Assembly (NCBI GenBank): GCA_030998225.1
Contig: JAPYXD010000696.1
Coordinates: forward strand, 2,480,001-2,544,000
From: Diplolepis rosae
Lineage: Eukaryota > Arthropoda > Insecta > Hymenoptera > Diplolepididae
DNA: 64,000 bases
Direction: 5' to 3'
Below, one piece after another: positions 40,199-63,941 of the stretch. Within the stretch, counting starts at the first letter, position 1. Every line of letters starts with the position of its first letter. A program made the position numbers and the translations under genes. The notes under the pieces are model-generated. The model did no database searches. It was given only the letters and a program-made list of their open reading frames with translations, and was not told where the DNA came from.

Positions 40199-40487
40199 AT
40201 TCAATCTCTAAATCTGAATCAGTCAAAACCTACTGATTATCAGTAAAACTCGACTGATGCAAATAGCCAAAAAGAGGTTACTGTGAATCAGTCAAATTTC
40301 ACTGAATACTTTAGTGACAATGAACTGATTCAACATAGTCAAACATAATTCTTCACTCATAAAATCGGTGAAAATGAACTAATTTATCAGTAAAAAATAT
40401 TTTGTTTACTGATAAATCAGTGAAAAGGCAAATCACTAATTCAATCAGTGAAAAATTTGACTGATTCAGATTTAGAGAGTAAAAGGA
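40199..40487. repeat. Small palindromic MITE in the spacer of the foldback
   Basis: The ends CTCTAAATCTGAATCAGTCA and TGACTGATTCAGATTTAGAG are mirror images. The interior is built of repeated CACTGATT / AATCAGTG motifs. About 285 bp, non-coding. Confidence 0.75.
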
Positions 40488-41954: not shown

Positions 41955-42100
41955 GATGGAAGACGCGACGCTGATAAAATTCCCGACCAGCCCCACAAAT
42001 TGAACGCGTGACCCAATCGCGGACCCAGAAGAAGGTCATATGTCATACATCTAGTCAGCCCTATCCGACTCCCTGCCTGCAACGGCGAGAACTTGATTCC
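41955..42100. other. Junction between two large palindromes
   Basis: 146 bp separate the two palindromes. CATCTAGTCAGCCCTATCCG near 42048 pairs weakly with AGTCGGGCAGGGCTGCATCT near 46155, so the second palindrome may once have extended to about 42040 and 46185. Confidence 0.5.
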
Positions 42101-42916
42101 CTTAGTGATTATAGTTTCTATGTGCGAAGTTTTCTCACCAGAGCCGCGCTGCACGCGGCACGCTCTACAAAAGCATTATACTAGTAGACAAATATTTTAA
42201 AAAATTTAAATAATTAAGTTTCTGAACAATATGAAATGAAAAAATGTCCCTAAAATGATTCTAGGACTTAAAATACACATTTTGCATAAATCAATTAATA
42301 TAAAATAAAAAAAAGAACACATTAAACTTCGTAAAATATATACTGTGGATACGCATGAAGAATTCTTGAGACCCTGCACAAATTTTTTTTTATATTATCC
42401 CCATATAACTGAAAATATATTTAAAAATAAATAAAAAGCTTAAGCTTCTAAATAGAAGTATTTTCCATTTTTATTTTCCAGCTTCAAACGAATGAAATGA
42501 AAAATAATTATTTTGTTAAGCCCTGTGTTCAACATAAAAAACCATGTGGAGGGAAATACATACTAAATTAATAATTTGTAAATGTAACAAAAAATATTCA
42601 TTACTATACTAATTACTATTCATTACTAATTTGCTAGTACATATTTTTAACATATTTAAAATTGTTAACATGTACAGATCGATGATGACTAGTTAAGTTT
42701 CGTAAAGCTTGGCTGCTTTTTTCTTCAAGGCGCTAACTTTTTTAATCTCAGCCATTTCCTGTCTTACGAATTGTCTCATTCTTATTTAAAATAAAATAAA
42801 ATCACATATGCTGACATCTCTACAGCTTCATTGGCATTTTCTTTGCATTGAAAAATGAATTTTGTTTCAGATGAAATTAAATCGTCTAGAATTAGATCAA
42901 AAGAATTGCTAGACCG

Positions 42917-43306
42917 TCAATGTTTGTTAAATAGATATTCGACAACTGTGATAAGCTTGCATAACTTAACATTTGGATGTATGGAATCTTTACTTATTTT
43001 TGCAAATAGACTCAGACTTTCAGGTAACTGATCACAAGAAATAGTTATCGTATCTGCATGAATTTCAGAAGTAGTCAAAAATGCATTTAAGCATGTCGAA
43101 CACTGAGTGTGCTGTTTAATGTAAGCAGTTATACGACCAGTTGTGTAAAAAATCAAACAATCTCTAACAGCTGGTAAAGCATAATCGTGCGCTACTGCAT
43201 CTACAAAATCACTAAAATCAGTGTCTTCACAATCAATTATTGCTTTCAACTTTTCTCGAATTTCTTTAATTGCGCTTTTACTATTCGACTGATGTAATTC
43301 TTTCAA
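42917..43306 (-). CDS. 129-aa ORF resembling a P-element/THAP9-type transposase C-terminus, left arm
   Basis: An intact frame, MKELHQSNSKSAIKEIREKL at its start. The segment CLIFYTTGRITAYIKQHTQC followed by STCL and then HPNVKLCKLI resembles the C-terminal block of P-element-like transposases (tyrosine-glycine motif, Cys pair, HPN near the end). The catalytic core is missing, so it cannot be a complete transposase. Identification is by eye and tentative. It differs from the right-arm copy at three residues (Glu/Gln, Leu/Arg, Cys/Tyr). Confidence 0.45.
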   Translation of the reverse strand: MKELHQSNSKSAIKEIREKLKAIIDCEDTDFSDFVDAVAHDYALPAVRDCLIFYTTGRITAYIKQHTQCSTCLNAFLTTSEIHADTITISCDQLPESLSLFAKISKDSIHPNVKLCKLITVVEYLFNKH

Positions 43307-43651
43307 TTTTGTAATTGTTATTAAGGGCTGTAGAGGGTTGCCATCGAAAGTACTACAATTTCAAAGCTTTGCAGGTTTCAAAATGCTAAAGGCAGCTAAT
43401 ATCTTGTATATTTGCAAGAAGGTTAGTGTACAAGGATAATCATTTGTTCCTCCGGCTAATCTGATAGTGCCAAAAACTCTCTAAACAAAAGGAAAGGAAC
43501 GAAAAATTAGTGAAACTTTTATACAGTATTGATAATATTCCATTCGAAATCTCATACTGAATAAAATATTTTTATCTTGTTCAGTTAAATTTTCTGAAAT
43601 TGTAGTACTTTCGATGGTAACCCTCTACAGCCCTTAATAACAATTACAAAA

Positions 43652-44041
43652 TTGAAAGAATTACATCAGTCGAATAGTAAAAGCGCAATTAAAGAAATTC
43701 GAGAAAAGTTGAAAGCAATAATTGATTGTCAAGACACTGATTTTAGTGATTTTGTAGATGCAGTAGCGCACGATTATGCTTTACCAGCTGTTAGAGATTG
43801 TTTGATTTTTTACACAACTGGTCGTATAACTGCTTACATTAAACAGCACACTCAGTGTTCGACATGCTTAAATGCATTTTTGACTACTTCTGAAATTCAT
43901 GCAGATACGATAACTATTTCTTGTGATCAGTTACCTGAAAGTCTGAGTCGATTTGCAAAAATAAGTAAAGATTCCATACATCCAAATGTTAAGTTATACA
44001 AGCTTATCACAGTTGTCGAATATCTATTTAACAAACATTGA
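43652..44041 (+). CDS. 129-aa ORF, right-arm twin of the P-element-like fragment
   Basis: Mirror-image copy of the 42917-43306 ORF on the opposite strand, also intact. Only three amino-acid differences are seen, so either the duplication is young or the arms exchange sequence. The C-terminus-only coding capacity and divergent arrangement suggest a rearranged deletion derivative of a P-like element. Confidence 0.45.
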   Translation: MKELHQSNSKSAIKEIREKLKAIIDCQDTDFSDFVDAVAHDYALPAVRDCLIFYTTGRITAYIKQHTQCSTCLNAFLTTSEIHADTITISCDQLPESLSRFAKISKDSIHPNVKLYKLITVVEYLFNKH

Positions 44042-44493
44042 CGGTCTAGCAATTCTTTTGATCTAATTCTAGACGATTTAATGTCATCTGAAACAAAATT
44101 CATTTTTCAATGCAAAGAAAATGCCAATGAAGCTGTAGAGATGTCAGCATATGTGATTTTATTTTATTTTAAATAAGAATGAGACAATTCGTAAGACAGG
44201 AAATGGCTGAGATTAAAAAAGTTAGCGCCTTGAAGAAAAAAGCAGCCAAGCTTTACGAAACTTAACTAGTCATCATCGATCTGTACATGTTAACAATTTT
44301 AAATATGTTAAAAATATGTACTAGCAAATTTTATAGTAATGAATATTTTTTGTTACATTTACAAATTATTAATTTAGTATGTATTTCCTTCACATGGTTT
44401 TTTATGTTGAACACAGGGCTTAACAAAATAATTATTTTTCATTTGATTTGCCTGAAGCTGGAAAATAAAAATGGAAAATACTTCTATTTACTA

Positions 44494-45780
44494 GGTTGTT
44501 CAAAAAATTTTGAAAGCGGAAATGAAAATATGTTATTTTTTGGTGAAATCACTTTTATTGCTTAGTATAATCTCCCATAAGATCAATACATTTGGTCCAA
44601 CGGTCTTCCAACTTGTTTATCCCATCACGGAAGTGACTTTCTGCAAGACCTGCAAAATACTCCTCTACGACGGCTATAACCTCTTCGTTTGATGAAAAAT
44701 GCTTCCCACGAAGGAATTTCTTGAGGTGTTGGAACAGCCAGAAGTCAGAGGGAGCTAAATCAGGCAAATAAGGTGGATGCTGCAAAAATTCGTACTTTAA
44801 TTCGGTTATTTTAGTGATGGCTTTTTGAGCTGTGTGAGCGGGTGCATTGTCTTGATGAAAACGGATTTTTTTCTTCTGCAAACCGGGTCTTTTTTCACGG
44901 ATTTTTGCATCCAATTGATCCAAAAGGTTACAATAATATTCAGAATTTATTGTTTTGCCAGTTTGGAGATAATCCACCAACAAAATTCCTTTTGCATCCC
45001 AAAAAACTGATGCTAACACTTTCTTCGCCGATTTCTGGACACGAACTCGCTTCGGTGCAGAAGTGCCTGGTTCAGACCACTCCTTAGCCTCTTGTTTTGA
45101 TTCAGGATCATGATGAAAGACCCAAGTCTCATCCATAGTGACGAATTGACGGAAAAAATCCTTTTTATCCTTTCGAAAACGCTCCAAATGTTGCTCAGAA
45201 AGTCGCATTCGAACGTGTTTTTGTTCCATTGTGAGCGAATGCGGCACCCATTGTGCACAGAGCTTTCTGAAACCCAAAACTTCACGTAAAATATGACTCA
45301 CACTGCCTAATGAGATGTCTAGGGCCTCTGCTAAATCTCTCTCGGTCAATCGACGATCTTCCAAAACCATATCCTGTACTTTTGCTATGAATGCTGGTGT
45401 TGATGCACTTTTTGGACGTCCTGAGCGTGGATCGTCTTCAACGCTTTTTCGACCAAGTCTAAACTCTAAAACCCATCGATGCACAGTTGGAAATGAAGGA
45501 GCAGCTTCCTTTAACACTTTCACCATTTTTGTATGAATTTCCGTTGCTGATAAACCTTCCAAAACAAAGAATTTTATCACTGCACGATATTCGGTTTTTT
45601 CCATTGTTCAAAAATACACTGACACGTCAACTTCAAATGGCTTGTAAACAAACAATGAATTGACAGAGTGGAATGACACTTTGGGTATGTTCATATGAAA
45701 GATGAAATCTTAAAATGGCGTAGAAATTTTGGTTCTTCTACTGCTCTATAGATGTCGCTTTCAAAACTTTTTGAACAATC
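44494..45780 (-). mobile_element. Complete mariner element with intact gene
   Basis: The inverted ends GGTTGTTCAAAAAATTTTGA and, from the other side, GATTGTTCAAAAAGTTTTGA are bounded by TA (44492-44493 and 45781-45782). Length is 1287 bp. It lies inside the right arm of the large inverted duplication and is absent from the left arm, so it is younger than the duplication. Confidence 0.95.
44555..45604 (-). CDS. mariner transposase, apparently intact (349 aa)
   Basis: An uninterrupted frame of the usual mariner length. The N-terminal HTH region contains EYRAVIKFFVLEGLSATEIH. The linker motif is WVPHSL (119-124). The catalytic triad is Asp158 (TMDETW), Asp252 (HQDNAPAH) and Asp287 (LPDLAPSDFWLF), with exactly 34 residues between the last two. 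The protein cuts and pastes mariner DNA at TA sites in the nucleus. The only departure seen is Leu instead of the common Ser in YSPDLAPSD. The start ATG gives the family-typical MEKTEYRAVI terminus. The subfamily resembles irritans-like mariners; that is inference. It may still be active. Confidence 0.93.
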   Translation of the reverse strand: MEKTEYRAVIKFFVLEGLSATEIHTKMVKVLKEAAPSFPTVHRWVLEFRLGRKSVEDDPRSGRPKSASTPAFIAKVQDMVLEDRRLTERDLAEALDISLGSVSHILREVLGFRKLCAQWVPHSLTMEQKHVRMRLSEQHLERFRKDKKDFFRQFVTMDETWVFHHDPESKQEAKEWSEPGTSAPKRVRVQKSAKKVLASVFWDAKGILLVDYLQTGKTINSEYYCNLLDQLDAKIREKRPGLQKKKIRFHQDNAPAHTAQKAITKITELKYEFLQHPPYLPDLAPSDFWLFQHLKKFLRGKHFSSNEEVIAVVEEYFAGLAESHFRDGINKLEDRWTKCIDLMGDYTKQ

Positions 45781-46133
45781 TAGTAGAAGCTTAAGCTTTT
45801 TATTTATTTTTAAATATATTTTCAGTTATATGGGGATAATATAAAAAAAATTTTGTTCAGGGTCTCAAGAATTCTTCATGCGTATCCACAGTATATATTT
45901 TACGAAGTTTAATGTGTTCTGTTTTTTATTTTATATTAATTTATCTATGCAAAATGTGTATTTTATGTCCTAGAATCATTTTAGGGACATTTTTTCATTT
46001 CATATTGTTCAGAAACTTAATTATTCAAATTTTTTTAAATATTTGTGTAGTAGTATGATGCTTTCGTAGAGCGTGCCGCGTGCAGCGCCGCTCTGGTGAG
46101 AAAACTTCGCACATAGAAACTATAATCACTAAG

Positions 46134-46764
46134 GAACCGCCATTTTGTTTTTAGTCGGGCAGGGCTGCATCTAGTAGACGACTGGGCAACCCGTGCCTAG
46201 CATAATGATTGCCCTCGGCTATAAACACGCGGTTCTCTCAATTACAACGAACAGCGCTTGTAGTGCATTGGCAGTATTATAATTAGTGTCCATTTACATC
46301 ATACGATATAAATTTAGTATCACACATGTCGAAAATACTAAATATCAAGTCCCGGGATCTATGCGCCCCGGGGTACGTCTTCTGGGTCACGTGGTGGCAT
46401 CTGGTCGTCTTGCGCGTCGCTCTCCAACGATCGATGGCGGCAATGGTCGAAGCATCGATACATCGTGGCTCGAAAGTCGACATGGCGGCCAGCGTTGACA
46501 TCAACTCGGTAGCCGGTTGTGCCTCATCTCCAACGCTGCTGTCCTCATATAGTATGGAACAGACGGGACAGGAAGCGTAAGTGCGGGTAGTGAGTGATTA
46601 GTTTTTCGAGTGCTCCCGGGTGGCGACGAAATGCGGTCTCTCGCCATACGACTTTTTCCCCAGGGACATAACCCCACCTGTCAAACCGGTGAGTTTAACC
46701 AGGTAAAATTCTTTTAATGTGACGGGTAAATTGTACCACGTCACAGTAGCATTTTAGGGACAAG
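46134..46764 (+). other. GC-rich stretch with exon-like features, unrecognised
   Basis: A TATA-like CTATAAA near 46219 is followed about 20 nt later by TCTCAATTAC. An open frame MAAMVEASIHRGSKVDMAAS is followed by VDINSVAGCASSPTLLS and ends at GAAGC with GTAAGTG (46578), a good splice-donor form. TTTTCCCCAG near 46662 could be an acceptor. The pattern could be the promoter and first exon of a gene or the leader of a retroelement. No family is recognised. Confidence 0.25.
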
Positions 46765-48452: not shown

Positions 48453-48803
48453 TTATGCTTTCATTTTTTTTGATAAAAAAAAAAAACATTTTTGCGTTGT
48501 GGATATCATCGCCAACCATCTTAATATATTACAGTTATTTGCAATATTTGGAAGTATACAATGTTCATACAGTTTGTGAGAAATGTCTACTATTTTGTAT
48601 TTTAAGTTTTCTGGTTGCAAAATGTCAAAATAAGAGATAAAATTGTAATTTTCGGAAAATAGACGTATTTTTGAAATTGGTTCAAAATAAATACCAGATG
48701 AGTGATAAAATTGTGAATTGATATACAAATGTTCTGCTTTAGAAGTGGAAAACAGAATTATCATCAAGTATACGCCAGAAGGTAGTTGGTATAGGAGTTT
48801 CAT
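48453..48803 (-). pseudogene. F-type envelope gene fragment (N-terminal)
   Basis: A 116-aa frame with a hydrophobic signal-peptide-like start (YLMIILFSTSKA), then FYHSSGIYFEPISKIRLF and FISYFDILQ. This is the N-terminal style of errantivirus envelope proteins related to the baculovirus F protein. An envelope protein would normally be about four times longer; the fusion and transmembrane parts are missing. It begins 57 nt after the end of the dsRNA-binding-like frame. It may be the ancestral envelope gene left behind after another glycoprotein was gained. Confidence 0.5.
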
Positions 48804-48860: not shown

Positions 48861-50219
48861 TTACATATGGTTGGATTTAGGTCTAGAAGTTTTTTGGAAA
48901 AAACGGGAAAATAGACTACTAAATGTTGAGGAGTTTCGTGGTGGAAGTGGAGGGGGAACTTGTGTTGATTTATGAGCTTTAAAAATATTCCGTCTACAGC
49001 ACTCTTTTGTAGTATGCAATTGAGTGTTACAATCTCTACATGAATTTTTCCATGATACTAATTTCGGTCTTGGATCAGTTTGAACACTTTGGTTCTTTGT
49101 TTTTTCTGTTTCTTTACATTTATTATTATAAAAAGCCTCATCGCAAAGATCATAAGATCTTATTAATAGTTGTAGTAATTTTAAAGCAGCTCTATTTTCG
49201 GCTAACTCGCTTGTAGGACCCGCTTGTACAGAAAAATGATCGTTTGTATTAACTTGAGCAAGAAAAAATGATTTAGTTTTTGAATTCGGATCAGGATAAA
49301 CGATGTATTGTGGTAACGTTAATCCATATTTTATCGTAAAATTTCTCAAAATTTCCACGTGGTTTAAAAGTCCCAGATAGTCTGTTCTACATATCTTTTT
49401 TTTGTAACTTCGCACGTGGGTAGGCTCATCATAGTAATGCTCCATTATAAATGATTTCCTGAATCAGTATGGAATATTTATATTAGAATTTATTGTACTG
49501 ATTGGGGGGTCTATATCCGCATTTAAAACATTTCTTAAAGCTTTTTCCAGAAAAAGGCGATGTAGTAGAAATATTATTTCTTTTTATTTTTTAAGGATTT
49601 ATATTTGTAAAACGACTGTTATTGGATGTATTAGATTTTGTTATCTGACCACTTGTTGAAGGTTTTGGATCATTTATAGGTGATTCTTATATTGTAACGT
49701 GCAAATGTTCTAGTGAGTTTATTAAATTTACTTCACATTTTTTATCTTTTTGCAAAAGAGAATTTATCATTTTTATAGCTGCGAAATCCTTTGCTGTTTT
49801 TATTGTGTTTGCAATTCCTATTCGTTTAATATCATTAATAAAACAAATTTCTATGTATGTTGAGTCTTTTGATGAGGTTTTTATTCGTAATACTGTATAT
49901 TTTGGAAACTCAAATTTATTTTGAGTGCAAATTTCGTTTAAGTTTTTGCAATTTTTCTAATAAAATTTGGTTGGACATTTTGATTTGTTTCCTTTGATTC
50001 ATTAATCAAGGCGTTATATAAATTTTGTGCTACCTTTTGCTTTACATTTTCTTTATCTTAGCCACTATTTATTATTATATAATTTTTATATTGTAAATTA
50101 ACGTGAAATAAACATTCATTATTATTGGTTTGTTCAATGAGTATCTCATAAATGAGGGGCGGATCTTCTCTTTGTTGAATAATTTTGTTTAGTAAGGTTG
50201 TAATAGGAACATGCAACAT
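48861..50219 (-). pseudogene. Triple dsRNA-binding-domain-like gene in the retrovirus
   Basis: The start ATG (50219) lies 10 nt after the glycoprotein stop. Three segments look like dsRNA-binding domains. The first, at about 50210-50001, has PITTLLNKIIQQ, LFHVNLQY and VKQKVAQNLYNAL. The second, at about 49965-49751, has LNEICTQNKFEFPKYTV, IEICFINDIKRIGI and KTAKDFAAIKMINSLL. The third, at about 49382-49160, has LGLLNHVEILRN, FFLAQVNTNDHF and SELAENRAALKLLQLL. Spacing and order recall the TRBP/Loquacious/R2D2 family, partners of Dicer. After domain 3 come a zinc knuckle CRDCNTQLHTTKEC (C-X2-C-X4-H-X4-C) and PPPLPPR. One stop in domain 1 and a frameshift in domain 2 break the first part; the last 194 codons (49445-48861) are open. 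Family assignment is by eye. Confidence 0.55.
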
Positions 50220-50229
50220 TCTTAAGATG

Positions 50230-52020
50230 TTAGATTTGAATTGAATAATGTGATCTACTAAGTTCTTCTTTTAGTTCAGAGTGAGGATAAAGAGTAGTTT
50301 TCGTACTATTATGATCTTTACCTGTATTGGTATTTTCGTTATGAGATGAACGTTTAGTTTCCTCTATAGAGTTTTGTGGTGCTGAAGCTGTGAGCAGTGG
50401 TTGATGGCTCTCAGCGGGAGGTCCAGCAGGTCGGTTGGTACCTAAGTGTAACAAGAGGTTAGTGACCGAATCTCGGAAGGCGCCTAGTAGATGGAGAGAC
50501 CATCCAAATGATCTATGTAATGCATAGCCATGAATAATGGTATCTGCTATTAATTTGATCCCTCTAATTATTATAATTCATCCAATTAAACCTGCACTAG
50601 TAGTTCCGAAATTTGTAAAAACTGTTATCAATTACTTCTTGGTTAAATAAATTTGTCAATGATATTCCTTGATTAATAGTCGGATGTCCTGTTATTTCTC
50701 TAGCTAAAGAATTTAAAATCATTGGTGTTTTTGTTGGAAACATTATATGATCTCGTAGCTTATCAAGGTCAGATTGAGAATAAATGCCACTTTTTGCTAA
50801 GGATGAAGGATTTGTATATTTCCAGGTTGCTTTTGTTAGAGGTTTAATTATAGTTGGTTCTATGGATTCAACACGATTTGGAAGTAATTTATACCAGGTT
50901 TCACCAAAAAGGTACATTGGTGGAAGGAAATATATGAGTTCGTGGAGAAAGGAAAAAGGATTGATTTCCTCTGAATACTGGTAATTGTAGATAACATTCT
51001 TCAGTTTTGCGATATTTTACTTCAACTGGTATACATTTTACGATATGTACTACTTCTCCTGCAATTACTGACATATATCCTGGGCTTTTCATTAAATGAT
51101 ATGCAAATTCGTCTGGTGATTGGGTTGCTAAGGTTAATGTATTTCTAAAAACTTGCTGTTCAAGTATACATCGTTGAGTAAGAACGTCGTGATAAAGTCT
51201 ATTTATTTCAGTGCGTATGTGTCTTTCCACATATATGAATTTAGAGTTAACGTATGTAAAAATGTCCATATTTTGAACTTCTAAATGTTTATTTTCTAAG
51301 AATGAATTTCCAGGTCTGGTTTCAAAAATTAATAATTTTGGATGTTCTGTTTATATTAAAACATAACTGCAAACTGGTTTTCTTGTTTTCTCAGCCAGTA
51401 CGAAGATTATATCTTCAGTCGTTAAAGAATAAAAGGTTTCAGAATTGTCTGTTGTGTTGTCATATGTTTTATTTGCTGGTTCTTCATAAATAATGTTTGT
51501 CCATATTCTACGTCTGTACAGAATGTGTCTGAAAGTGTGCATGTTATTCCAGATCCTAATTGAATTTTATACCAGTACAGTCTCTATTAGGTGTTACAGA
51601 ACCTGCTAAAGTAACGCTATGGAATGAAGTTTCATTTACTTTTAATTTTGATATCTGAAGAGAAGGGCTTACAAAAAATGTTTCTATTGTGTGCATTTGA
51701 TTACATTGATCTCGTGTAACATCATGTATATATTCACTGTGGCCATTTGCAACTATGGAACTGTGAGAATGCATTCCACAATGAGAGATGGCGCGTCGAA
51801 TTTCTATTTTGCATTGTATTACTTTTGTATTTGAAAATCCAGTTAATTGTAAAAGCTGTATATAAGTTCTTTCAACATGTACTTGAGATCGAGGTAGATC
51901 ACATTCTCCTACCTCCAGTAAAGATAGTGTCGTGATATTTGATTGATTTGAACCGCAATCGAATCCTATGATGGCGTAGACTGTTGTTATATAGTTGAAG
52001 TTGCAAATGAGCAGTGCCAA
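50230..52020 (-). pseudogene. Viral-type envelope glycoprotein gene, broken
   Basis: The first frame (52020-51556) has a hydrophobic start, then IIGFDCGS, SLLEVGECDLP and HCGMHSHSS. Later frames (51542-51351, 51269-50901, 50917-50597, 50454-50230) carry YHDVLTQRCILEQQ, GEVVHIVKCIPVEV and EECYLQLPV, a hydrophobic segment near 50590-50540, and a polar tail ending at 50230. The Cys pattern and these motifs resemble glycoproteins of arthropod mononegaviruses (chuvirus type), not the F-type envelope usual in errantiviruses. At least two frameshifts (near 51555 and 50910) and two or more stops disable it. Lineage is my judgement from short motifs. Confidence 0.55.
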
Positions 52021-52128
52021 AAGGAAGCCTCGTTATCCCATCTCTGGAAAAAGGAGGTTCCAATTAGCAGCTTGCTTTGTAATAAAAGAATTAATAAAAT
52101 TACTTAATAAACAATTTTGTTGTTACTG

Positions 52129-53373: not shown

Positions 53374-53886
53374 TTAGATCTTACAATGGTGTGATAATAA
53401 ACTCAATACCTCAAATCTGATTTCTGCGAAAATTTTCAACATGTTTTTATGAATTTCTCTATATATTTTATAGAACTTCTTTAATTCGGGATTGAATACA
53501 AAATTTACAGTACTCGTTAGAGTTACTCCAGATTTTTCCTGCATTAAATCCTGACAGTTATACAAAACATAGAAAATTTGTTCACGGTTCGCTCGTATCC
53601 CCAACTCTTCAAATAATTCAAGAAAATTTAATGAACTTTTTTTTCCGTGTAGGCGTAAACTGAGAATCAAGTTTTTGTACGCGTCCGGTCCTCTTGTTTT
53701 GATTGTTGAAAAAATTTCTTTTATTGTATCTGGATTGTTTAGGTTTCTGCTCCATGTGGGAATATCATAGTCGTCTTGGTTAAAAATTACATTTTGAATT
53801 AAGTATGGCCAGAGAGCTACCATGTCGATAAAACAGGGAACTATTTCAATGAGATCATCTATGCGTTTGCGATGAATTTGATCCAT
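53374..53886 (-). CDS. 170-aa ORF with CARD-like domain, in the retrovirus
   Basis: An intact frame just after integrase, where envelope would be expected. Residues about 3-92 look like a caspase recruitment domain: HRKRIDDLIEIVP (helix 1), MVALWPYLIQNVIFNQDD (helices 2-3), TIKEIFSTIKTRGPDAYKNL (helices 4-5 with the RGP-x-A motif typical of caspase and adaptor CARDs) and ILSLRLHG. The rest (93-170) is unrecognised and shows no caspase catalytic motif. CARDs mediate assembly of Dronc-type caspases with Dark/Apaf-1 in insects. A stand-alone CARD in a virus would be expected to act as a decoy or recruiter; that role is inference. A diverged copy of about 105 bp of its 3' end lies at 53290-53370. 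Not confirmed by any search. Confidence 0.5.
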   Translation of the reverse strand: MDQIHRKRIDDLIEIVPCFIDMVALWPYLIQNVIFNQDDYDIPTWSRNLNNPDTIKEIFSTIKTRGPDAYKNLILSLRLHGKKSSLNFLELFEELGIRANREQIFYVLYNCQDLMQEKSGVTLTSTVNFVFNPELKKFYKIYREIHKNMLKIFAEIRFEVLSLLSHHCKI

Positions 53887-53984
53887 TATATCTGGAATAA
53901 TGTGTTATGTCTAAATTTCATGATTTTTTTTGTTTGTTTGTTGTATATATTTTTTATATAAAATATATATTTTTATATAAATAT

Positions 53985-54770
53985 ATAAAAAATACGTTGT
54001 CTCCAATTTTTACTTCTAAAGGATTTATTTTTTTATCATAATATATTTTCGATTTTCCTTTTGCTGAAATAAGATTTTCTCTTGCTTGTGTTCGCATTTC
54101 GTGTAGTTGTGTTACGAAATTAATTAAATAATAATCATACGTTTGTAATTTTTGTTGTTGTGATAAAGGTTCGCTGGAAGGTTCACGAGCTAATTTACCA
54201 AAAACTAATTCATAGGGTGTGCATTTTGTGCCTTCATGTACACTAGTATTATACGAGAACGAAATTGTTTAATTCTAAAACGTTTTGCCAATCTTTTTAA
54301 TAAATTACTTAAAAAATCTCTGCCTTGGTGAGTAAGTACTCCTTTTGGTGATCCAAATATGCAAATAAATTTTTTCACAAAAGCATCTGCTATTGTACTA
54401 GCTTGGTGATTAGAAAGAGGTATTGCTAAAGAATATTTGGTAAAATTGATATATAAGTTACCAGATTTTGTTTCAGGTAGTGGACCAACAATGTCCATTG
54501 ATATTTTTTCAAAGCAGTAGTGGGTGTGTCTGTGATTACCATAGGATTTTTTGTTTTGACTCTGATTAATTTTTTCAGTTGACACTGTAAACAGCCTTAA
54601 ATATATTTTTGAATGTCTACATTCATATTTTCCCAAAAAATATTTTGGCGAATTCGACTAAAAGTTTTTTGTGACGCCTTTATGGCCTCCTAATTCTGAA
54701 GAATGAGATTCTTCAATTAAATGAGTTCGTTGTTCTTTTGTTGGATATTGCGTTATTCCATTACAACTAT
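53985..54770 (-). pseudogene. Retroviral integrase, broken
   Basis: The zinc-binding region (THLIEESHSSELGGHKG, then GCLQC in another frame) is followed by the core frame 54636-54205, with the first catalytic Asp in MDIVGPLPE and the segment FTKYSLAIPLSNHQ. The second catalytic position reads GVLTHQG, with His where integrases have Asp. The C-terminal part (TPYELVFGKLAREPSSEPL, then KIYYDKKINPLEVKIGDNVF) follows in another frame. Together with stops this makes the enzyme inactive. Integrase joins viral cDNA to the host chromosome. Confidence 0.85.
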
Positions 54771-54799
54771 AATTTTTGTAGTTGAATTGGAAAAAATTA

Positions 54800-56087
54800 A
54801 GTCGAAAATTGATTTCACTTCTTCCCAAGATATATGATTAATTCTAGAAGTTTTTGATATACTAATAGATCGTAATTTAAATCTTTGAGATAATTCATGT
54901 AATGAGTAGATTGATGATTTTATATTATTTAAACTTTCGGATAAATTTTCGTTAGTTTCTTCTTCAATTGGAAGTGCAAAATGGTAGTAGTTTCCTTTTT
55001 TAGTTTCTTTTGCTATCCCTTTTTGTGAATTTATAAATTTTGGTTAAGTTTCACGTTTTTCTCATGTTTTTGATGCGAAAGCATTTCGTGTGATTGCAGC
55101 CCTGTTTCACTCGGGCAGCAAACTTGACACTCATGCAATCGCTCTGTTTCGCCCCTTGTAATGTAATATACTATTCTGTTTCAGAGTTTATAGGAGGAGG
55201 TTCTGGGGGTGGACGATTATCGTTTTTTCCAGAATTTATTTGAGATTTCCGGTTTAGTTACAAATTTTTTTCAAAATGAGGCTCTTCAAATTCTTCTTCC
55301 AAGTTCTCTTCTTGGTTTTCTTCAAAATTTTCCTCAAGATCGTCTCCAAAATGTTCTTCAAAATTCTGTTCAAAATTCTTTTCGAAATTTTCCTCAATAT
55401 CTTCTTCAAAATTATCTTCCAAATTTTCTTCATCATTTTCTTCGTGTGAGGTTTCAGTGTCGTTGATTTCATCTTCTGAGGTTGAGAAATAAACTTTCTT
55501 CCCTTTCAAATTCATTAATATTTTTTTGCTTCATGGCATTCTTCTTCTTGTCTTTTGCTTGAGTTTGTTTCAAATGATCTAAATGATCTGGACCAGAGTC
55601 GGAATCTGATTCTACTTTTGTTCGGCTTCCCTTTTGCATATTTATTTCTGGTAATTCATCTTCCTATATTTGTTTTCTTGGTCTACCTCTCTTTCTTTTT
55701 GTTTGAGATGGAATATTTTTCAAATTTGTAAGTAGATTTTTTCTTGGCCTACCTCGTGGTTTTCTCACAAGAGGTGTAGAAAAAAAATTTTCGTCTAATT
55801 TTTCTTGAGTTTCATTTTGATTCAAATTTTTTGCTTTATCTTGCTCTATTCTCTTTTGAGCTCTTGTAGTAATAGTTTTCCATGCTAAATTTTCGTATTT
55901 TTTGGAAAACATTGGACTTAATAAAAATATTGTCATACAAATAAGTCTTGAAGCCATATTTTTTAATACATTTTTGTATTTTAAAATATTCTTACCAATC
56001 TCACTAAATGATTTTTCACTAAGGAATTCTTGTAAAAATTCTGGAATTTTAGAGTCAATATTTAATATTTGGGCTTCCGAAATTTCG
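54800..56087 (-). pseudogene. RNase H-integrase linker with AT-hooks and acidic repeats
   Basis: The frame 55957-55664 has ITTRAQKRIEQDKAK and two AT-hook motifs (KPRGRPRKN and RKRGRPRKQ). Next, 55515-55258 is an acidic repeat of FEE/NFEE units ending EFEEPHFEKNL. Next, about 55020-54800 has NYYHFALPIEEETNE. Errantiviruses have a variable spacer here, but AT-hooks, which bind AT-rich DNA, are unusual in it. Chromatin tethering for integration is a possible role (inference). An inserted fragment at about 55074-55176 matches the 2.8-kb palindrome family. Confidence 0.55.
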
Positions 56088-58073
56088 CTAAAACGATCTA
56101 CGTCGTCTGGTACGATTCCTGGATTCGTTTCTTCGTTCTGAAGGTCTTACCTCATTTTTAGAGTTTTCTTGTTTATTTAGTGTAAAAGTTTTCTTGGAAA
56201 ACATTTTTTCTCGAGAAGTCATGAAAGTATCATTGTCATCAACTTGTAAATATTTTGATTTCTCCTTGTTATCATCAATAGGGTTTCTTGAGAGAGTGTC
56301 TGCATTTACATTCATTTTTCCTGCTTTGTAAATTACATCAAAATCATATTCTGTGAGTTTTAATCTCCAACGTGAAACTCGTGAACAAGGGTCTTTAGAA
56401 TTTTGGAACCAAACTAGAGGTTTGTGATCAGTTACCAAAGTAAATTTTCTTCCATATAAATAAGGGCGACAATGAGTTTCACAAAATATTATAGCAGGGG
56501 CTTCTTTCTCATATGTATCATATTTTTTCTCAGTATCAATTAGACTACGTGAAACATATGCTATTGGTTTATCTTTACCTATTTTACCTTGTGATAAAAT
56601 ACCCCCTACTGCACATCCTGAGGCATCTGTTGTGAGTATAAAAGGTTGAGAAAAATCAGGTCGCTGTAAAAGTGGTTCTTCACATAATTTTTCTGATAAA
56701 ATATCGAATGCTGCTTGTTGTTTTTCTGTCCAATTAAAAGGTATATCTTTTTTCAGAAGTTGATCTAAAGGACTTGCAACTTTTGAAAATCCATCAATAA
56801 ATCGTCTGTAATATCCTGCTAAGCCTAAAAGTTGTTTAACATTTTTCTGTGTTTTTGGGTCTGGAAAGTTTTTTACAGCTATTATCTTTTTTGGATCTGG
56901 ACCTACTCCATTTTGATCAATTATATGACCTAAATATCTTACTTCGGGTCGTAAAAATTTGCATTTGTCTGGTTGTAAATGAAGATTCGCTTTTCTAAGT
57001 CTTTCTGCTGAATTGTTAAATTCAATTTCGTGCTCTTCTAGAGTATTTGCATATATAAATATGTCATCAAGATATACAAAAAGTTCCTTGACGATTAATC
57101 CAGTTAATGTTAAATCCATTAATCTCTGAAATGTGGCTGGTGCAGTTTTTAAACCGAAAGGAATTCATCGAATTCGTAATGACCGTGAGATGTAGAAAAC
57201 GCAGTTTTATGCGAGTCTTTTGGATCCATTTTTATATGGTGATAACCGGTAGCTAAATCAAACACTGAAAATATTTTGCTGATCCTAGAGAATCAAGTAC
57301 ATCGTTTATATTAGGTAGAGGATACGAATCGCCAATTTTTTTTTCATTTAATTTACGAAAATCAAGAACCATTCTCTATTTTATTTTTCCTTGAGAATCA
57401 GGTTTTTTAGGAACTATCCACACTGAAGTGTTATATGATGATTGCGAGGGCTTAATTATTTTATTTTTTAATGATTCATTGACTTGTCTTGTAATTTCTT
57501 CCTTGTGAACTGGGGGAAATCTATATTGTCTTGAAAAAATTGGAGCGTCATCTACAGTAGGAATTGAATGTTGTAATACATTAGTACCTTCAAGTGGTTC
57601 TCCTGGGATTTAAAATCTGTCTGCATTATTTTCAATTAATTTTTCTACATGTTCATATTCATCTTGATTTAAATGGTCTAATCGAAGAAGTTTTTAAATA
57701 CATCCCACTTTGTCTTCGTCTGTTACATTATAAATTTTACACGAGTTAATCAGAGAAATGTCAGTTCTGAAAAAGTTATTTAATATTTTATTTGATAAAT
57801 CTTCGTTATTTGTTTGTTTAAAATTATGTAAATTTTCAATTTGTTTATAACATTCTTTTTCTTCAAAATCTTCTAAATTAACTATTGGGACTGATAATGT
57901 TATTGGTATTTCATTTGTGTTTGCAAATTTTAAATAAGCTTTTCCTTTGCGATTTTTTACAACTGCGTCTCCTATGTAAACGCCATCTTGGATATGTAAT
58001 CGTGGTACATACCCTTCACTCTTTTCTGTGTTGTTTATATTAACATATAATGTTGTAACTGTTCGAGCTGGAA
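56088..58073 (-). pseudogene. Errantivirus-type reverse transcriptase and RNase H, broken
   Basis: The 5' part (58073-57120) reads, in changing frames, IPARTVTTLYVNI, VDDAPIFSRQYRFPP, NTSVWIVPKKPDS and RMVLDFRKLNEKKIGDSYPL. It has a stop near 57374 and frameshifts near 57280 and 57165. The open 343-codon frame 57119-56088 has the RT active site VYLDDIFIYA, LGLAGYYRRFIDGFSKVASP, the RNase H start TTDASGCAVGG, and ends through DHKPLVWFQN and NADTLSRNP. This domain order is that of Ty3/gypsy pol. Confidence 0.92.
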
Positions 58074-58322
58074 TACCCGTGTAGAAATTTTGATAGGGGT
58101 CTAGTGGGGCCCCGACGAGTTTGCCCTATCTCTAGTCGGGATCTAGCGTGGAAAATTAGTCAGGGCCCCGTCGGTAACGTAACGCTTTTGTCGACGTGGG
58201 CCCCACTAGACTTTCTAGTGGGGATCTAGTGAGGTCAGCCCTTACACTACCCCACCTACAAAAAAGGACACCATTAGGGCCCTATTTGACCTCCGCATTG
58301 TATTTAAAGGCATATATCAGCA

Positions 58323-58500
58323 GGATCACGTGACCAATTTTGTTCAGGTATCTCACTGTAAAAATAATAAATAAAAAGGATTTTCCATAGCAGATAAACG
58401 TTCCTTGTTCTTTCCTTTACGTTTATCTGTTATGGAAAATCCATTTCATTTATTATTTTTTAAGTAAGATGCCTGAAAAAAATTGATCACGTGACCCAGT
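58323..58500. repeat. Hairpin MITE inside the EnSpm-like element
   Basis: GGATCACGTGACCAATTTTG is answered by a near-inverse ending at GATCACGTGACCC. The arms include GGATTTTCCATAGCAGATAA and meet at a loop of about 15 nt near 58412. About 178 bp, non-coding. It is a third nesting level: hairpin in EnSpm-like element in retrovirus. Confidence 0.85.
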
Positions 58501-58889
58501 TAATATTTGCCCTTAATAAATTGTGAATGAATGGGTACGCATACGGGACGATTCAATTCAAAATTATATAAAAGTTTTCTTAAAAATGCTTGATTCCTCT
58601 TAAGTATTGATCTTATCCAAGACCGTGTTCGGAAAATCTTCATTTTTCTCAGATAAGATCAAATTTTAATGGGAATAAAGAATCTCGAATACAATTTTTC
58701 AAAAATTTCGATTCGAAATCCTCTCATCTGTATTGTCTCGCATTTATTTTCAATTGATTAAATCCAATCCAGAGACTCTGGTGGAATGAAATCACAACTT
58801 AATTAAAATAAAAAATGTGTGATGTTTTAAACATTTCATTATTTATATTATATTGACATGTTAAATGTTAATAAATTACATTTTATAAC

Positions 58890-60070
58890 TCATTCTTCAT
58901 AGTTTTCGTATTGTTCCTGACTCCCATATTCTCTGCTCTTGCGCCCACCTTCCCAATCTTTTACATTGGGCAGAACACTTTTTAATTCCGCAAGGAAAAG
59001 TCTCTCATTAAGTTGCTGTCCTATCGTATCTGTGTGCGAATTTAAAATCGCAGCTGAAAAACATACCACCGTTATTTAAGAAATATAAAATATGAAATTG
59101 ATATATGTATTATAAATTGCATAATTTTTATTAATTCTCACCAAGCATGCATGAGTACATTCTTGTATCCTTAAAAATTTTTTTATTTTCAGTAGCTTTC
59201 ATTGCCACAAATTGAAGAGCAACATTTTTTGAGAGGAATCGTTTTAAAATATTTGAAATACTTTTTAGAGCATTTCGTGCAGGATCGTAGTAGGTTGAAA
59301 GTATTGATATCTATAAAAATGAAGTTGTTTTATTGCATATAATTGAACTGACCAAAATCTTTATATGGTTTAATGTTTTGTTAAGATAACTATACTTACA
59401 AACTTTCCACGAAAGTTTTCATCTTTTAATTGTTCTTCGAATTCAAGGAAATTGTCCATTTCTTTTAGTGGAATTACTAAATCATTATCTTGTAAGAAAT
59501 TTATTGGGGGAACGGTGGCCTTTTCCAGCTCAAGTTGGTGTATTCTTACATTTAAAGATCTTTGCTCTTTAACCACTTCTTTTAATAGAATTTGATTGGT
59601 CGTAACGACATTTAGAACTTGAGCTGCAACAAAAATTTTAACAATGATAATTTATCCTTCAAAACTTCAAAACCTAAAATTTTTTAAGCCTGCAATGAAA
59701 AATATGAATAATATTTAAATTTTTTACCTAATCGGTCTTTCTCATTTGTACATCTTTCACAGAGGTTTGTTTTGTGAGTTTTTTCGATTGGTTTCATTAA
59801 AAATCCTGAAGAAAAAATTGTAGTTAAGTGGTCCAGAACAGATATACATTTTCTAGTTAAATATCAATTTTATATTATATTTCCTTGCTAAAATAATTAG
59901 TTTAGAATACGAGATCTTAAATATGCAACATAAATTGCAATTATAAACAAATTCGTAAGAAAGAATGAAACAAAATATGTATGCACATAAAAATTTGTGG
60001 TCTTTCACCTGATTTTTTTTCCTTGGATCCTTGCTCTTTTGGTTCTATAGCATTGGGAGGCTGTTTGGCC
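58890..60070 (-). CDS. Spliced DUF4806-like gene part in the EnSpm-like element
   Basis: Several short exons with good splice signals. One near 59820-59730 contains KTHKTNLCERCTNEKDRL. One at about 59622-59399 contains LEKATVPPINFLQDNDLVIP then LEFEEQLKDENFRGKF, with donor GTAAGT. One at about 59311-59150 contains YYDPARNALKSISNILKRFL. The last, at about 59060-58895, is LPNVKDWEGGRKSREYGSQE to a stop. The LEFEEQLKDENFR block recalls DUF4806, a domain common in insect transposon-related proteins. Whether these exons join the upstream transposase exons into one protein or form a second gene is not clear. Confidence 0.5.
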
Positions 60071-60076
60071 CCTTCT

Positions 60077-61886
60077 TTATAAGATGTCCCAGCAAAATTC
60101 TTCAGAACATAAGATTCTAGCAGCCACATGTAAAAGCAAGAAATGATTGTATAATTCGTCTCTTAGAAGATGCTTTAAAACAACTGGTCCGCAATAAAGT
60201 AAGAACCTAAATTCAGTTGCTTTCCATTTTGCAAGCGATGCAGTTGATCTTGTTTTTCGCTCAAATTCTAAGGGTATCTGAGTCTTTATAGACTCCAATC
60301 GTCTACCAAGTTCGAGTCTGCTTCTTACATCGAGTCTGACATTCAAATTTCCAGTATGCAAAAAATCCAATATTTTTTTCATAATGCCATTGCAGAAAAG
60401 GTGCATAAAGTCAAGGATAAACATTGAAATTATGTCTGTCGGAGGATCTATGCGCAACAAAGGTGAAGGGCCATTGTGATTTCTAGGCTATCGATGACAT
60501 CTGAAAGAAGCGTCAGTTCGTTCTCGGGCTTCAGTATCAGGATAAACTGTCCTACGTTCTACTCTTATGCCTAAGACCTCACATCTTTCGCAGGCTTCTA
60601 TGCCGCCATGAACTAATGTGTTTTTTAAAAAAGCTCGTGCAGGCGTGTCACAGATAATGCACTTTAATTCAAACTCCATTTTCACTTCTTTTATAATAAT
60701 TCCGACATTCTGTAGTTCATTAACTTCGTCTATGAACTGTTCCAAATATTCTTCGGAGCTGTTTGGTTTTGATTGTCCAAAAAATATTGCAATCGCAAAC
60801 ACTTCATATACTTCCGGATAGAAGTGAACTTTCCCTGACAATATCCAGAATTGATCATCTCCTGATTTCTTTAAAGGAATACCGTCGGCACTAACTTGCA
60901 ACTGTATTTTTTTGTTCATGTGTAGATCAGGATTTACACAGTCTTGTAAACCTTTCCTTATGCCAAAATAAACAAACTGTCCTGGATTTTTTTTCGAAGC
61001 TGTCATCTCAATAATATTATATTGAGCATCAACAGTTCGAAGAAAAGTTTTAGAACTTTTAGGTAAGGTAGGTAGTAAGCGCTCTCTCAAAATTCCGAGT
61101 AAAACATCCAGGTCCTTTTGATTTATTTTATGTGCAAATTTACGCAACGGTTCAATTTCCGGCGGAGGATTATATTGTGGAATCTCTAATACATCATTAT
61201 CAGAGTCACTTGACTAATCTTCAGACGAATCACCATGAATTTGGTAATAATATTTCTGTAGATCGTCAGGTAAATAATTGTCGACGACCTCCTCCTCTTG
61301 ACTCCTATCAACATTTAGACTTGAAGTTGATGTAGTTAGTTCGATGGAACTAGTTAATTCATCTGAAAGTAAGAAAATAATGAGTTCTTTTTAAATAAAA
61401 CTTTTAATTAAGAAATTTCCTGACGAGTACTGAAAAAAAAAATTTTGAACCTACAATTTTGATACATTTCTATCATTTTTCTCAAAAAAATAATGTTGTT
61501 CTTAAATTACATATTTTACTTTTTAATTAAATTTTTTATTATAACTATATTAATTACCTTCTCAGCTGCCCTCTGTATCAAAGTGCACTGATGTAACCTC
61601 AATGTTTTTTACATTCTCATCTGAAACGCTATTAAGCAAATCAGATATTTCGAAAGATAATTATACTATTGTTATATGATTTCATTTTATTATTTTATAC
61701 TGTTAAATTAATTATAAATTTATTCAAAATATATTATTTACCTTTCGGAATAGTCGATGACACACATATCCTCTACAATGTTTTCAATTCTGTCAGAATC
61801 TATTCTTTGTCCAATTTTTTGCATCAAGCGAAACTTTTTACTCCGCAGTCTTCCTTGAGCCTGCTCCCGCCTTTTTCTTTCCATCA
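60077..61886 (-). pseudogene. EnSpm-like transposase gene (spliced), two stops
   Basis: The first exon, at about 61886-61741, starts MERKRREQAQGRLRSKKFRL, with donor GTAAAT. Further exons lie near 61670-61560 and 61366-60077. The long exon has IQLQVSADGIPLKKSGDDQFWI, split here after SGDD, then FELKCIICDTPARAFLK, ACERCEVLG, PPTDIISMFILDFMHLFCNG and KWKATEFRFLLYCGPVVL. The C-x-x-C and DFMHL motifs with the final block are typical of the transposase family found in CMC/EnSpm-like animal elements. In-frame stops occur near 61235 and at 60488-60490, so this copy is inactive. Confidence 0.7.
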
Positions 61887-62208
61887 CGATGCAAAAAAAT
61901 TGTAGCAGTGCACAAGGAGAGATAACACTTCAGGAACAAAGGTTATGTTGTATCTAATGGACCTAACCTTAACCACAAATATTAATAGTAGGGATTCTCT
62001 AGTCGGGGCCCCGCTAGATACAAATAGATTTTTCATACTTAAGCGAAACAAGGAATTCCTCACTGGAACCAGTTTTTTCTGGACTAGAAATACTAATCGG
62101 GTGCTAACAGGGCCCCTACCAGTTTTTTCTAGATGAGGAAATTCTAGTCCGGGCCCCACTAGAACCCAACTTGAAATAAGGAAAGATAGGGCAATTTCTA
62201 CACGGGTA

Positions 62209-62640
62209 GTAAATGTATTGGTAGATTTAAAAGGGTAACAGTGGTTCTCAATTTCTAAGCATTTTGAAGTATAATTTATATTTACACTATTATCTTGAAA
62301 AAATTCTGTTCCTAATACTCCATCTTCTTCTACTGGGACTTCATTCGGAATAATGTTAAATATCGTTGGATAACCAAAAATGTTTATTTTTACCTGTCCT
62401 AATGTGTAAAGTGGTAAATCATTAATTCCTGTAAGTTTTAATACGTTTTGGCTATTTATAGGTACTTCAGGGTTGATAAACTTTTGTTTAATTAAATTTC
62501 AAGCAGTACTAGTATCAATCATCTTGTGTGTTGGATTTTTTAAACCTTCCGTTGATATTATAATTGATGGAATCGAAGTGGACTTTGGAAAAACCAAAAG
62601 AAGTAGAATAATGTTACAAAATAAAAGCAATTTATCCGAA
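62209..62640 (-). pseudogene. Retroviral aspartic protease, remnant
   Basis: On the minus strand SIPSIIIST is followed by MIDTSTA (active-site Asp), then a stop, then LKLTGINDLPLYTLGQVKIN, IFNIIPNEVP and GVLGTEFFQ. This is the domain order of errantivirus-type proteases. It continues across the EnSpm-like insertion into pol. Confidence 0.75.
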
Positions 62641-63269: not shown

Positions 63270-63941
63270 TCATTTCAATTGATGAAATGTTGAGCTCAAT
63301 CTTTTGCTTTCGGGGAAAGGGACCACTTCGAGCGCGTCACGTAAGGATACCTGCTGGCTGTTAGGTATGACTACGGCCATCTCTTCGTTGTTTACTATTA
63401 CGGGGTTATCCTGATTTATGACTTCTGTGTCGCTTTTGTCGTCTTCGCTGCCATTGTTACTAATTATAGAGTCGCGTGCCAATAAGGTTTTCAATTTTTC
63501 ATTCAAAGTTTTATTTTCTATTGTTATTGCCGTTGAGCTTAGCAAATTAGATCCGTCAAAATAAGATAATTCGTTCGTTGAAGTTTGATCTTGATTACTA
63601 GATCCTGTCACAATGCTTAAATCTGGACAGAAACTTCAATAAAACCCGCTAGTTTTACTAGATTTTTCACTTGATATGCTTCGATCATTAATTAGAGTCT
63701 TGTCGAAACGTGAATCGTCTAGCTGAAGAGTGTTATCTAATTCTTGTTCAGCAGGAAAAGTGTTTGAAATATCCTTGTATTTATAGTCGACTAAATTTTC
63801 TTTTATTTTGCCTGATCTTTTTAGTTTCAAGGAATCTATTTGATTCAGATCCACAATTTTTGCGAGTTGATTGTCTTGTTTGGCTTTACTAAGCGTAATA
63901 ACCTTTTGGGCGGATTCTACAGGGGTATTTGAATTTGACAT
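63270..63941 (-). pseudogene. Retroviral gag, N-terminal part
   Basis: Starts MSNSNTPVESAQKVITLS at 63941. An in-frame stop near 63636 is followed in the same frame by more sequence, ending SLRDALEVVPFPE, a block typical of errantivirus gag proteins. The frame then stops at 63270. The capsid and nucleocapsid portions are missing. The start codon is 59 nt from the window edge, so the leader and 5' LTR lie outside. Confidence 0.6.

What the first reader, a model, noticed from the sequence alone, without database searches (positions are those of the whole stretch)
48861..50219. Retrovirus-borne gene with three dsRNA-binding-like domains: candidate RNAi suppressor
Seen: starting 10 nt after the glycoprotein stop, three successive segments match the dsRNA-binding pattern, followed by a perfect C-X2-C-X4-H-X4-C knuckle. 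Known: three dsRBDs in a row is the layout of TRBP/Loquacious/R2D2, Dicer partners in RNAi, and several insect viruses use dsRBD proteins to block RNAi. Inference: an endogenous retrovirus captured or evolved a Dicer-partner mimic. I know of no described errantivirus with such a gene.
Basis: partly seen in the sequence, partly recalled or inferred. Interest (0 to 1): 0.92.

Follow-up and report, generated by a model that had tools for sequence, protein, structure and literature searches.

The report
Insect endogenous retrovirus with dsRNA-binding genes
A large virus-like element scattered through an insect-like genome carries several extra genes whose proteins resemble the helper proteins cells use for RNA interference, which hints that such elements may carry tools to blunt their host's RNA-based defence.

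Summary
The dsRNA-binding resemblance is real; the "one gene, three domains" layout is not. The window holds a decayed, truncated copy of a roughly 17-kb env-bearing Ty3/gypsy element with at least 150 scored matches in this genome. In other copies the stretch is two neighbouring genes in different frames. ORF-A (243-245 aa) has two dsRBDs and a half knuckle; ORF-B (194 aa) one dsRBD and a CX2CX4HX4C knuckle. A third gene, ORF-E (dsRBD + knuckle), lies before the 3' LTR and is missing here. All three evolve under purifying selection (dN/dS 0.10-0.26). ORF-B's best model has the dsRBD fold; the ORF-A model failed. Such genes recur in related elements of the genome. Except for ORF-B, the nearest host domains are mostly Loquacious/TRBP-type. 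Two unlike envelope genes, chuvirus-type and baculovirus-F-type, flank ORF-A/B. RNAi suppression is plausible but untested: ORF-B's domain lacks the RNA-contact lysines, while 48 of 73 ORF-E relatives keep the motif. New variant of a known kind.

The parts
63315..63941 (-). start of gag of the element
   Evidence: tblastn with gag of another copy, 72% over residues 1-208
53984..62405 (-). pol in several frames, interrupted by other sequence between about 58.1 and 62.2 kb; RT and RNase H at 56091-57164
   Evidence: tblastn with pol pieces of another copy, 67-91%; Pfam RVT_1 5.3e-17 and RT_RNaseH 5.1e-35 in the window piece
53377..53904 (-). CARD-like small ORF of the element; residues 1 to about 95 belong to the element (93-aa ORF in three other copies read), the rest matches another repeat
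   Evidence: Pfam CARD E 0.0018 (window) and 0.018 (L040), both below the cut-off
50233..52041 (-). env1, chuvirus-type glycoprotein, broken into several frames
   Evidence: Pfam Monjiviricetes_fusion up to 218.9 bits; tblastn
49486..50219 (-). ORF-A: dsRBD1 + dsRBD2 + half knuckle; broken here by three in-frame stops and a change of frame
48861..49445 (-). ORF-B: dsRBD without KKxAK + CX2CX4HX4C knuckle + proline-rich tail; open here (194 aa)
48525..48803 (-). env2, first 93 residues of the baculovirus-F-type envelope; no match to the rest of env2, ORF-C, ORF-D or ORF-E was found where they would follow
   Evidence: tblastn 70%; the gene in another copy is Pfam Baculo_F E 1.9e-22

Best explanation
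What it is (shown): a decayed copy of a large env-bearing Ty3/gypsy endogenous retrovirus with an unusually rich gene set. Read from pieces of several copies the order is gag, pol, a CARD-like ORF, env1 (chuvirus-type), ORF-A, ORF-B, env2 (baculovirus-F-type), ORF-C, ORF-D, ORF-E, LTR. ORF-A, ORF-B and ORF-E are dsRBD proteins; B and E also carry a CCHC knuckle and are paralogues. A dsRBD+knuckle gene recurs in related elements and is probably an old accessory gene of the group, multiplied in the window's family. How it works (inferred): the proteins with retained RNA-contact lysines (ORF-E, partly ORF-A) bind double-stranded stretches of the element's own RNA in the cytoplasm, with the knuckle adding affinity, and shield it or its siRNAs from Dicer-2 and its partner proteins. 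ORF-B, which lost those lysines, would act by pairing with other dsRBD proteins (ORF-A/E or host Loqs/R2D2). The net effect would be suppression of siRNA-type defence.
For: Domain matches in other copies and relatives (ORF-E 17 of 18 rows); ORF-B's best model (residues 29-97, block pLDDT 75-91) with TARBP2, Staufen, R2D2, Loqs and RNase III among the best PDB matches, E 2.7e-5 for the first. dN/dS 0.22-0.26 (A), 0.12-0.14 (B; 0.03 in its dsRBD), 0.10 (E). Paralogy of B and E over dsRBD plus knuckle, hhalign E 5.4e-6, probability 86%. Same kind of gene in other elements: L043-L048, L049, L051-L053. Nearest host domains are Loqs/TRBP-type for the ORF-E-type HMM and A2. KK.AK in 48 of 73 ORF-E relatives (many rows are fragments). 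Precedent: IIV-6 340R, a 23-kDa single-dsRBD protein, blocks Dicer-2 processing and siRNA loading and needs a lysine that faces the RNA and its C-terminal part (PMC4231766, abstract and passages).
Against: No binding, expression or silencing data. In the papers seen, env-bearing gypsy elements of insects are silenced by piRNAs, whose making is not known (recalled) to need dsRNA (PMC13172572 passages). KK.AK is in 0 of 44 ORF-B relatives and 0 of 34 ORF-A relatives (two of the 36 found left out); ORF-A keeps two of three lysines in each domain (read). ORF-A's structure prediction failed, mean pLDDT 31.9. ORF-B's model has mean pLDDT 60.3 and the other four models 36.9-54.9. ORF-B ranks no Dicer-partner domain first, and ORF-E of L038 taken alone by pairwise score ranks a first-type domain, C252_1, above the second-type ones. 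By sequence ORF-A and ORF-E match PDB chains only weakly (best 0.0039 Loqs, 0.0014 plant Dicer). A knuckle next to an RNA-binding domain also suits packaging or RNA chaperoning.
Confidence: 0.5

Rival explanations
1. RNA handling of the element itself: the dsRBD+CCHC proteins act as RNA chaperones, packaging helpers or nuclear-export factors for the long unspliced RNA of an element with many genes, like a Rev- or CERV-type accessory protein.
For: B and E join a dsRBD to a retroviral-type CCHC knuckle; the gene exists also in L043-type elements after pol and before an env-like ORF, and in L049 with no env seen. In C. elegans Cer1, a Ty3/gypsy element, the CERV protein is needed for nuclear export of genomic RNA (PMC10309623: title, start of abstract, passages).
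Against: CERV has no recognised RNA-binding motif, so the parallel is functional only. No export signal or RNA target was sought here. The resemblance of most domains is to Dicer-partner domains.
Confidence: 0.3
2. Decoy for other dsRNA-sensing or dsRNA-editing proteins (ADAR-like, PKR-like or Staufen-like), not the RNAi pathway.
For: dsRBD surfaces are shared among these families; ORF-B's model matches mosquito Staufen dsRBD4 almost as well as TRBP, and its HMM ranks host domain C284_3 first (0.12; C284 looks Staufen-like by recall).
Against: The ORF-E-type HMM and A2 rank Loqs/TRBP-type host domains first and C284 and ADAR-like ones well below.
Confidence: 0.12
3. Relics: the three segments are weak look-alikes in decaying repeat DNA, without a working protein.
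For: In the window segments 1 and 3 are below Pfam's cut-off and ORF-A is broken.
Against: 141 of 150 scored ORF-B matches have no stop inside (the best 150 of 1869 candidates); 26 of 150 scored ORF-E matches, the query's own copy included, are identical proteins (2273 candidates); dN/dS is far below 1; dsRBD fold for B.
Confidence: 0.02
4. One three-dsRBD protein made by a frameshift between ORF-A and ORF-B.
For: In copies L021-L029 the stop-to-stop frames overlap by 98 nt; one of 150 copies has a single unbroken 469-aa frame.
Against: ORF-B has its own start: 13 of 44 relatives begin with a recognisably similar N-terminus (many of the others are fragments); in the 14 intact-ORF-A copies of L002-L020 the frames do not overlap; the shift needed is +1. 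No search for a slippery site was run.
Confidence: 0.06

Closest known systems
Loquacious / TRBP (TARBP2) / R2D2, Dicer partner proteins
   Same: ORF-A's two domains line up with a D1-D2 order; the ORF-E-type HMM and A2 are nearest to the second dsRBD of Loqs/TRBP
   Different: The element's domains are split over three genes; B and E have a CCHC knuckle; ORF-B's domain lacks KKxAK; ORF-A's first domain is only weakly placed
Insect-virus dsRBD suppressors of RNAi (IIV-6 340R; DCV 1A)
   Same: Small viral proteins with a dsRBD; 340R: 70-aa dsRBD in a 23-kDa protein with a needed C-terminal part (PMC4231766)
   Different: Those are DNA or RNA viruses; here a retroelement, with a zinc knuckle and several paralogues; no suppression shown
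Errantiviruses and other env-bearing gypsy elements
   Same: RT, RNase H, integrase in Ty3/gypsy order, LTRs with TG..CA ends and a purine tract, baculovirus-F-type env
   Different: About 17 kb, two unlike envelopes, several accessory genes
Anakin (BEL/Pao element with chuvirus glycoprotein)
   Same: Chuvirus-type glycoprotein as env in an LTR element (PMC7642597 passages)
   Different: Anakin is BEL/Pao; this is gypsy with a second env and dsRBD genes. PMC10084718 reports no clear capture by gypsy (passages), but figure legends of PMC13172572 speak of gypsy with type III fusion glycoproteins in mosquitoes
Cer1 CERV of C. elegans
   Same: Accessory protein of a Ty3/gypsy element that acts on its RNA (PMC10309623 passages)
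   Different: No recognised RNA-binding motif and no dsRBD reported in the passages seen

Membership tests
dsRBD (Pfam PF00035) proteins | score above the curated cut-off | tested here: met
   ORF-A 41.3 bits (A2 alone 32.0), ORF-E 29.9, L043-type 43.6, cut-off 23; A1 alone 18.8 and ORF-B 20.8 are below it, though ORF-B relatives P0021 23.6 and P0022 29.4 pass; P0010 has no match
dsRBD (Pfam PF00035) proteins | alpha-beta-beta-beta-alpha fold | tested here: met
   ORF-B only, in the best of five models; the ORF-A model failed; ORF-E not modelled
dsRNA-binding (type A) dsRBD | KKxAK lysines at the start of helix 2 | tested here: inconclusive
   In 48 of 73 ORF-E relatives, 0 of 44 ORF-B relatives and 0 of 34 ORF-A relatives (two of 36 left out), the last keeping two of three lysines (many rows are fragments)
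CCHC zinc-knuckle proteins | C-X2-C-X4-H-X4-C | tested here: met
   Pattern in ORF-B (L027) and ORF-E (L038); in 13 of 44 ORF-B and 18 of 73 ORF-E relatives, fragments included, and 12 of 18 ORF-E rows of 140 aa or more; Pfam zf-CCHC_3 for ORF-E 23.8 bits is below its cut-off of 27
Loqs/TRBP/R2D2 Dicer partners | several dsRBDs in one protein, the last binding Dicer | tested here: not met
   A and B are separate reading frames; only ORF-A has two domains
Loqs/TRBP/R2D2 Dicer partners | monophyly with cellular partner domains | tested here: inconclusive
   Weak tree, 70/96 at the relevant fork, long branches; HMM ranking favours it for the ORF-E type and A2
Viral suppressors of RNAi | suppression of silencing in a reporter assay | not testable with these tools
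   needs bench work
Env-bearing Ty3/gypsy (errantivirus-like) elements | LTRs, gag, Ty3/gypsy-order pol, env | tested here: met
   LTR and ends; RVT_1, RT_RNaseH, Integrase_H2C2, rve in that order; env; gag named by place and a sub-threshold knuckle match only; no RT tree with named errantiviruses was made
Complex retrovirus (accessory genes beyond gag, pol, env) | conserved extra genes under selection | tested here: met
   ORF-A, B and E by dN/dS; ORF-D too diverged for dS; CARD-like ORF and ORF-C not tested for selection

The most novel reading that the evidence does not exclude
A clade of large insect endogenous retroviruses is a true complex retrovirus with a defence-blocking module. Dicer-partner-derived dsRBD proteins, multiplied into three genes, bind the element's dsRNA and compete with Loqs/R2D2. 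A 93-aa CARD-only protein interferes with apoptosis. Two unrelated envelopes, chuvirus-type and baculovirus-F-type, serve different cells or stages. This would mean that insect retroelements are under siRNA attack strong enough to favour their own suppressors.
Probability: 0.3. Interest if true: 0.92.

Novelty: new variant of a known kind. Interest (0 to 1): 0.72.

Why it matters
Insect endogenous retroviruses are usually thought of as gag-pol-env elements policed by piRNAs. Selected dsRBD genes in a group of them would make it testable whether they also fight the siRNA pathway, would give retroelements a counter-defence known from RNA and DNA viruses of insects, and would show gain and duplication of accessory genes and of envelopes on a scale more familiar from vertebrate complex retroviruses.

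Tried and rejected
Single three-dsRBD gene: rejected, two frames. Decayed look-alike: rejected. The CARD-like ORF as an unrelated insertion: first noted so, then corrected, since a 93-aa version sits between integrase and env1 in the three copies read; only its 3' part in the window is foreign. Exogenous viral relatives: none confirmed in viral contigs by three scans (no pattern match; 32 stretches, none confirmed; 9 stretches, none confirmed). Troyka as family: considered, its paper says no Troyka element has an envelope (outline and passages). Capture shown by phylogeny: not achieved, tree too weak. Rows dropped: of 15 host dsRBD stretches printed, 13 went into (left out: C349, nearly the same as C395b1, and C424, an L049-type element); these are the best-scoring host stretches of a capped search, not all host dsRBDs. 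Host species: not identified; 'insect-like' rests on the element types and on a Loquacious-like exon (E 9e-33 to Loquacious chains). Papers: ten searches, judged from listings of at most 20 titles and abstract starts each, showed none describing dsRBD genes in such elements; 'errantivir' with 'dsrbd' gave 0 papers; the CARD question was asked once, 0 papers. Chary and Hayashi 2025 (eLife 108449), the most relevant title, was not held, so it may describe relatives. Passages of PMC12992720 held no accessory gene of this kind.

Full report
The window lies in a 757.7-Mb genome of 428 contigs. On its minus strand is a decayed Ty3/gypsy-type element. Matching it with pieces of other copies places gag at 63941-63315, pol between 62405 and 53984 with other sequence inside, the chuvirus-type glycoprotein env1 at 52041-50233, ORF-A at 50219-49486, ORF-B at 49445-48864 and the first 93 residues of a second envelope at 48803-48525. 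The rest of env2, ORF-C and ORF-D gave no match in the window, and ORF-E only a paralogous match to ORF-B and a 21-residue knuckle match far away at 23850-23912. Pfam names the first glycoprotein Monjiviricetes_fusion (up to 218.9 bits) and the second one, in another copy, Baculo_F (E 1.9e-22). RT, RNase H and integrase domains stand in the Ty3/gypsy order in the copy L042.

The finding's stretch was tested piece by piece. In the window the three segments score E 0.2, 1.3e-6 and 0.015 against Pfam dsrm; only the second passes the cut-off. In the copy L027 the same three domains score 0.0024, 1.9e-7 and 6.1e-4. Of relatives from the protein collection, 11 of 15 ORF-A rows (of 36 found; E up to 0.01), 8 of 12 ORF-B rows (of 44 found; E up to 1) and 17 of 18 ORF-E rows (of 73 found; E up to 0.01) match dsrm. 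So the resemblance is more than chance, strongest in domain 2 and ORF-E. Direct PDB matches by sequence are weak: segment 3 to TARBP2 0.65, ORF-A to Loqs 0.0039, ORF-E to a plant Dicer dsRBD 0.0014.

In 14 of 19 copies L002-L020, ORF-A is one open frame of 244 aa or more that ends 22 nt before the frame of ORF-B begins; of the other five, L003 and L005 have a shorter A frame and L009, L011 and L018 have it in pieces. In 9 of 9 copies L021-L029 the two frames overlap stop to stop but ORF-B's ATG lies after ORF-A's stop. One copy, L030, has a single unbroken 469-aa frame, by a frame change in ORF-A's tail. ORF-B's N-terminus is recognisable in 13 of 44 relatives, down to 48% identity; many of the rest are fragments. 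The window's ORF-A has three in-frame stops and a change of frame, while ORF-B has no stop.

The element is large and has many copies. Of 1869 candidates for ORF-B and 2273 for ORF-E, 150 each were scored and all matched. 141 of 150 ORF-B matches had no stop inside, and 26 of 150 ORF-E matches, the query's own copy included, were identical proteins. LTRs of about 760 nt begin TG and end CA, follow a purine tract, and are 99.5-99.8% identical between two 3' and two 5' LTRs of four copies, 98-99% against a fifth, L042. The sequence after the 5' LTR looks like a primer site for tRNA-Gly (recall only). Adding coordinates gives about 17.4 kb. Between integrase and env1 the three copies read have a 93-aa ORF with a sub-threshold CARD match (E 0.018); of 150 scored matches to the window's version, 148 cover its N-terminal, element part and two only its foreign part.

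The accessory genes are selected. Pairwise dN/dS between the two subfamilies is 0.22-0.26 for ORF-A, 0.12-0.14 for ORF-B (0.03 in its dsRBD), 0.10 for ORF-E and 0.13 for env2; for ORF-D and the more distant pairs synonymous change was saturated. ORF-B and ORF-E are paralogues over dsRBD and knuckle (hhalign E 5.4e-6, probability 86%); ORF-A's second domain matches ORF-E at 2.9e-4 (probability 40%) and ORF-B at 0.0046 (probability 8%).

Other elements in the same genome carry such a gene. In the six L043-L048 it follows the end of pol (in L044 in one open frame with it); an env-like ORF follows in five, not seen in L047; the one scanned (L045) is Baculo_F, E 5.2e-36. L049 has it after an ORF-C-like gene with no env seen; L051 has a Baculo_F env (E 1.4e-22) and an ORF-C before it; L052 and L053 have it too, L053 after an ORF-D. 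L050 is a further copy of the window's family. The dsRBD passes Pfam's cut-off in all four scanned (L043, L049, L051, L052). I therefore take a dsRBD+knuckle gene to be an old accessory gene of the group; elements without it were not sought.

Origin and likely action. L043's domain matches TARBP2 at E 4.4e-10 and Loquacious at 1.5e-6. Against the 13 host dsRBDs used, the ORF-E-type HMM and ORF-A's second domain put two Loqs/TRBP-type second domains first; ORF-A's first domain prefers a Loqs/TRBP-type first domain, weakly; ORF-B has no clear relative and ranks C284_3 first at 0.12; ORF-E of L038 alone, by pairwise score, ranks the first-type domain C252_1 first. The tree agrees in outline but its fork is weak. 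ORF-B's best model has a dsRBD at residues 29-97 (mean pLDDT of the whole 60.3, other models 36.9-54.9) and matches TARBP2, mosquito Staufen, R2D2, Loqs and RNase III structures. ORF-A's model failed (mean pLDDT 31.9), so its two domains rest on sequence. KK.AK is in 48 of 73 ORF-E relatives, 0 of 44 ORF-B relatives and 0 of 34 ORF-A relatives, two of 36 left out; ORF-A keeps two of the three lysines in each domain. So ORF-E is the best candidate dsRNA binder, ORF-A a possible one, and ORF-B more likely a protein-contact domain, as recalled for the third domain of TRBP.

The best-supported mechanism is therefore RNAi suppression by dsRNA shielding and dsRBD pairing, about even odds; RNA packaging or export by the dsRBD+knuckle proteins is the main rival. 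IIV-6 340R shows that one dsRBD in a small insect-virus protein can suppress RNAi (PMC4231766, abstract and passages); Cer1 CERV shows that a gypsy element can need its own RNA-export protein (PMC10309623, passages).

Against the literature: chuvirus-type env in LTR elements is known in BEL/Pao (PMC7642597 passages) and hinted for gypsy (PMC13172572, figure legends among passages), while PMC10084718 found no clear capture by gypsy (part 1 of 5 and passages). Two envelopes plus dsRBD genes in one element were not described in anything seen, but the key survey (eLife 108449) was not held.

Noticed in passing
L040:8461-8739 (+); window 53377-53904 (-): A 93-aa CARD-like ORF lies between integrase and env1 in the three copies read, with 148 of 150 scored genome matches to its part of the window ORF; Pfam CARD E 0.018, below the cut-off, and no CARD chain found in the PDB by sequence. 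A CARD-only protein in an insect retroelement would be notable.
   Followed up: partly
L027 (env1, ORF-A, ORF-B, env2): Two unlike envelope genes in one element: chuvirus-type and baculovirus-F-type.
   Followed up: partly
L027 against L036: env1 is 99% identical over the first 400 nt compared while the stretch from ORF-B's end to env2's end is 71-83%: a mosaic that suggests recombination between subfamilies.
   Followed up: partly
L029:4583-4987; L038:23-451: ORF-C and ORF-D, cysteine-rich proteins of 135 and 143 aa with no confident Pfam match; ORF-C relatives stand beside the dsRBD gene in L049 and L051.
   Followed up: partly
window 55283-55443: A 12-nt tandem array of about 13 units inside the pol linker, in a stretch with an open frame for a charged repeat.
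   Followed up: no
window 38420-46134: Nested inverted repeats of 351-768 nt, 96-99% complementary, and a mariner-like transposase ORF at 44555-45607 (-), named from recall.
   Followed up: no
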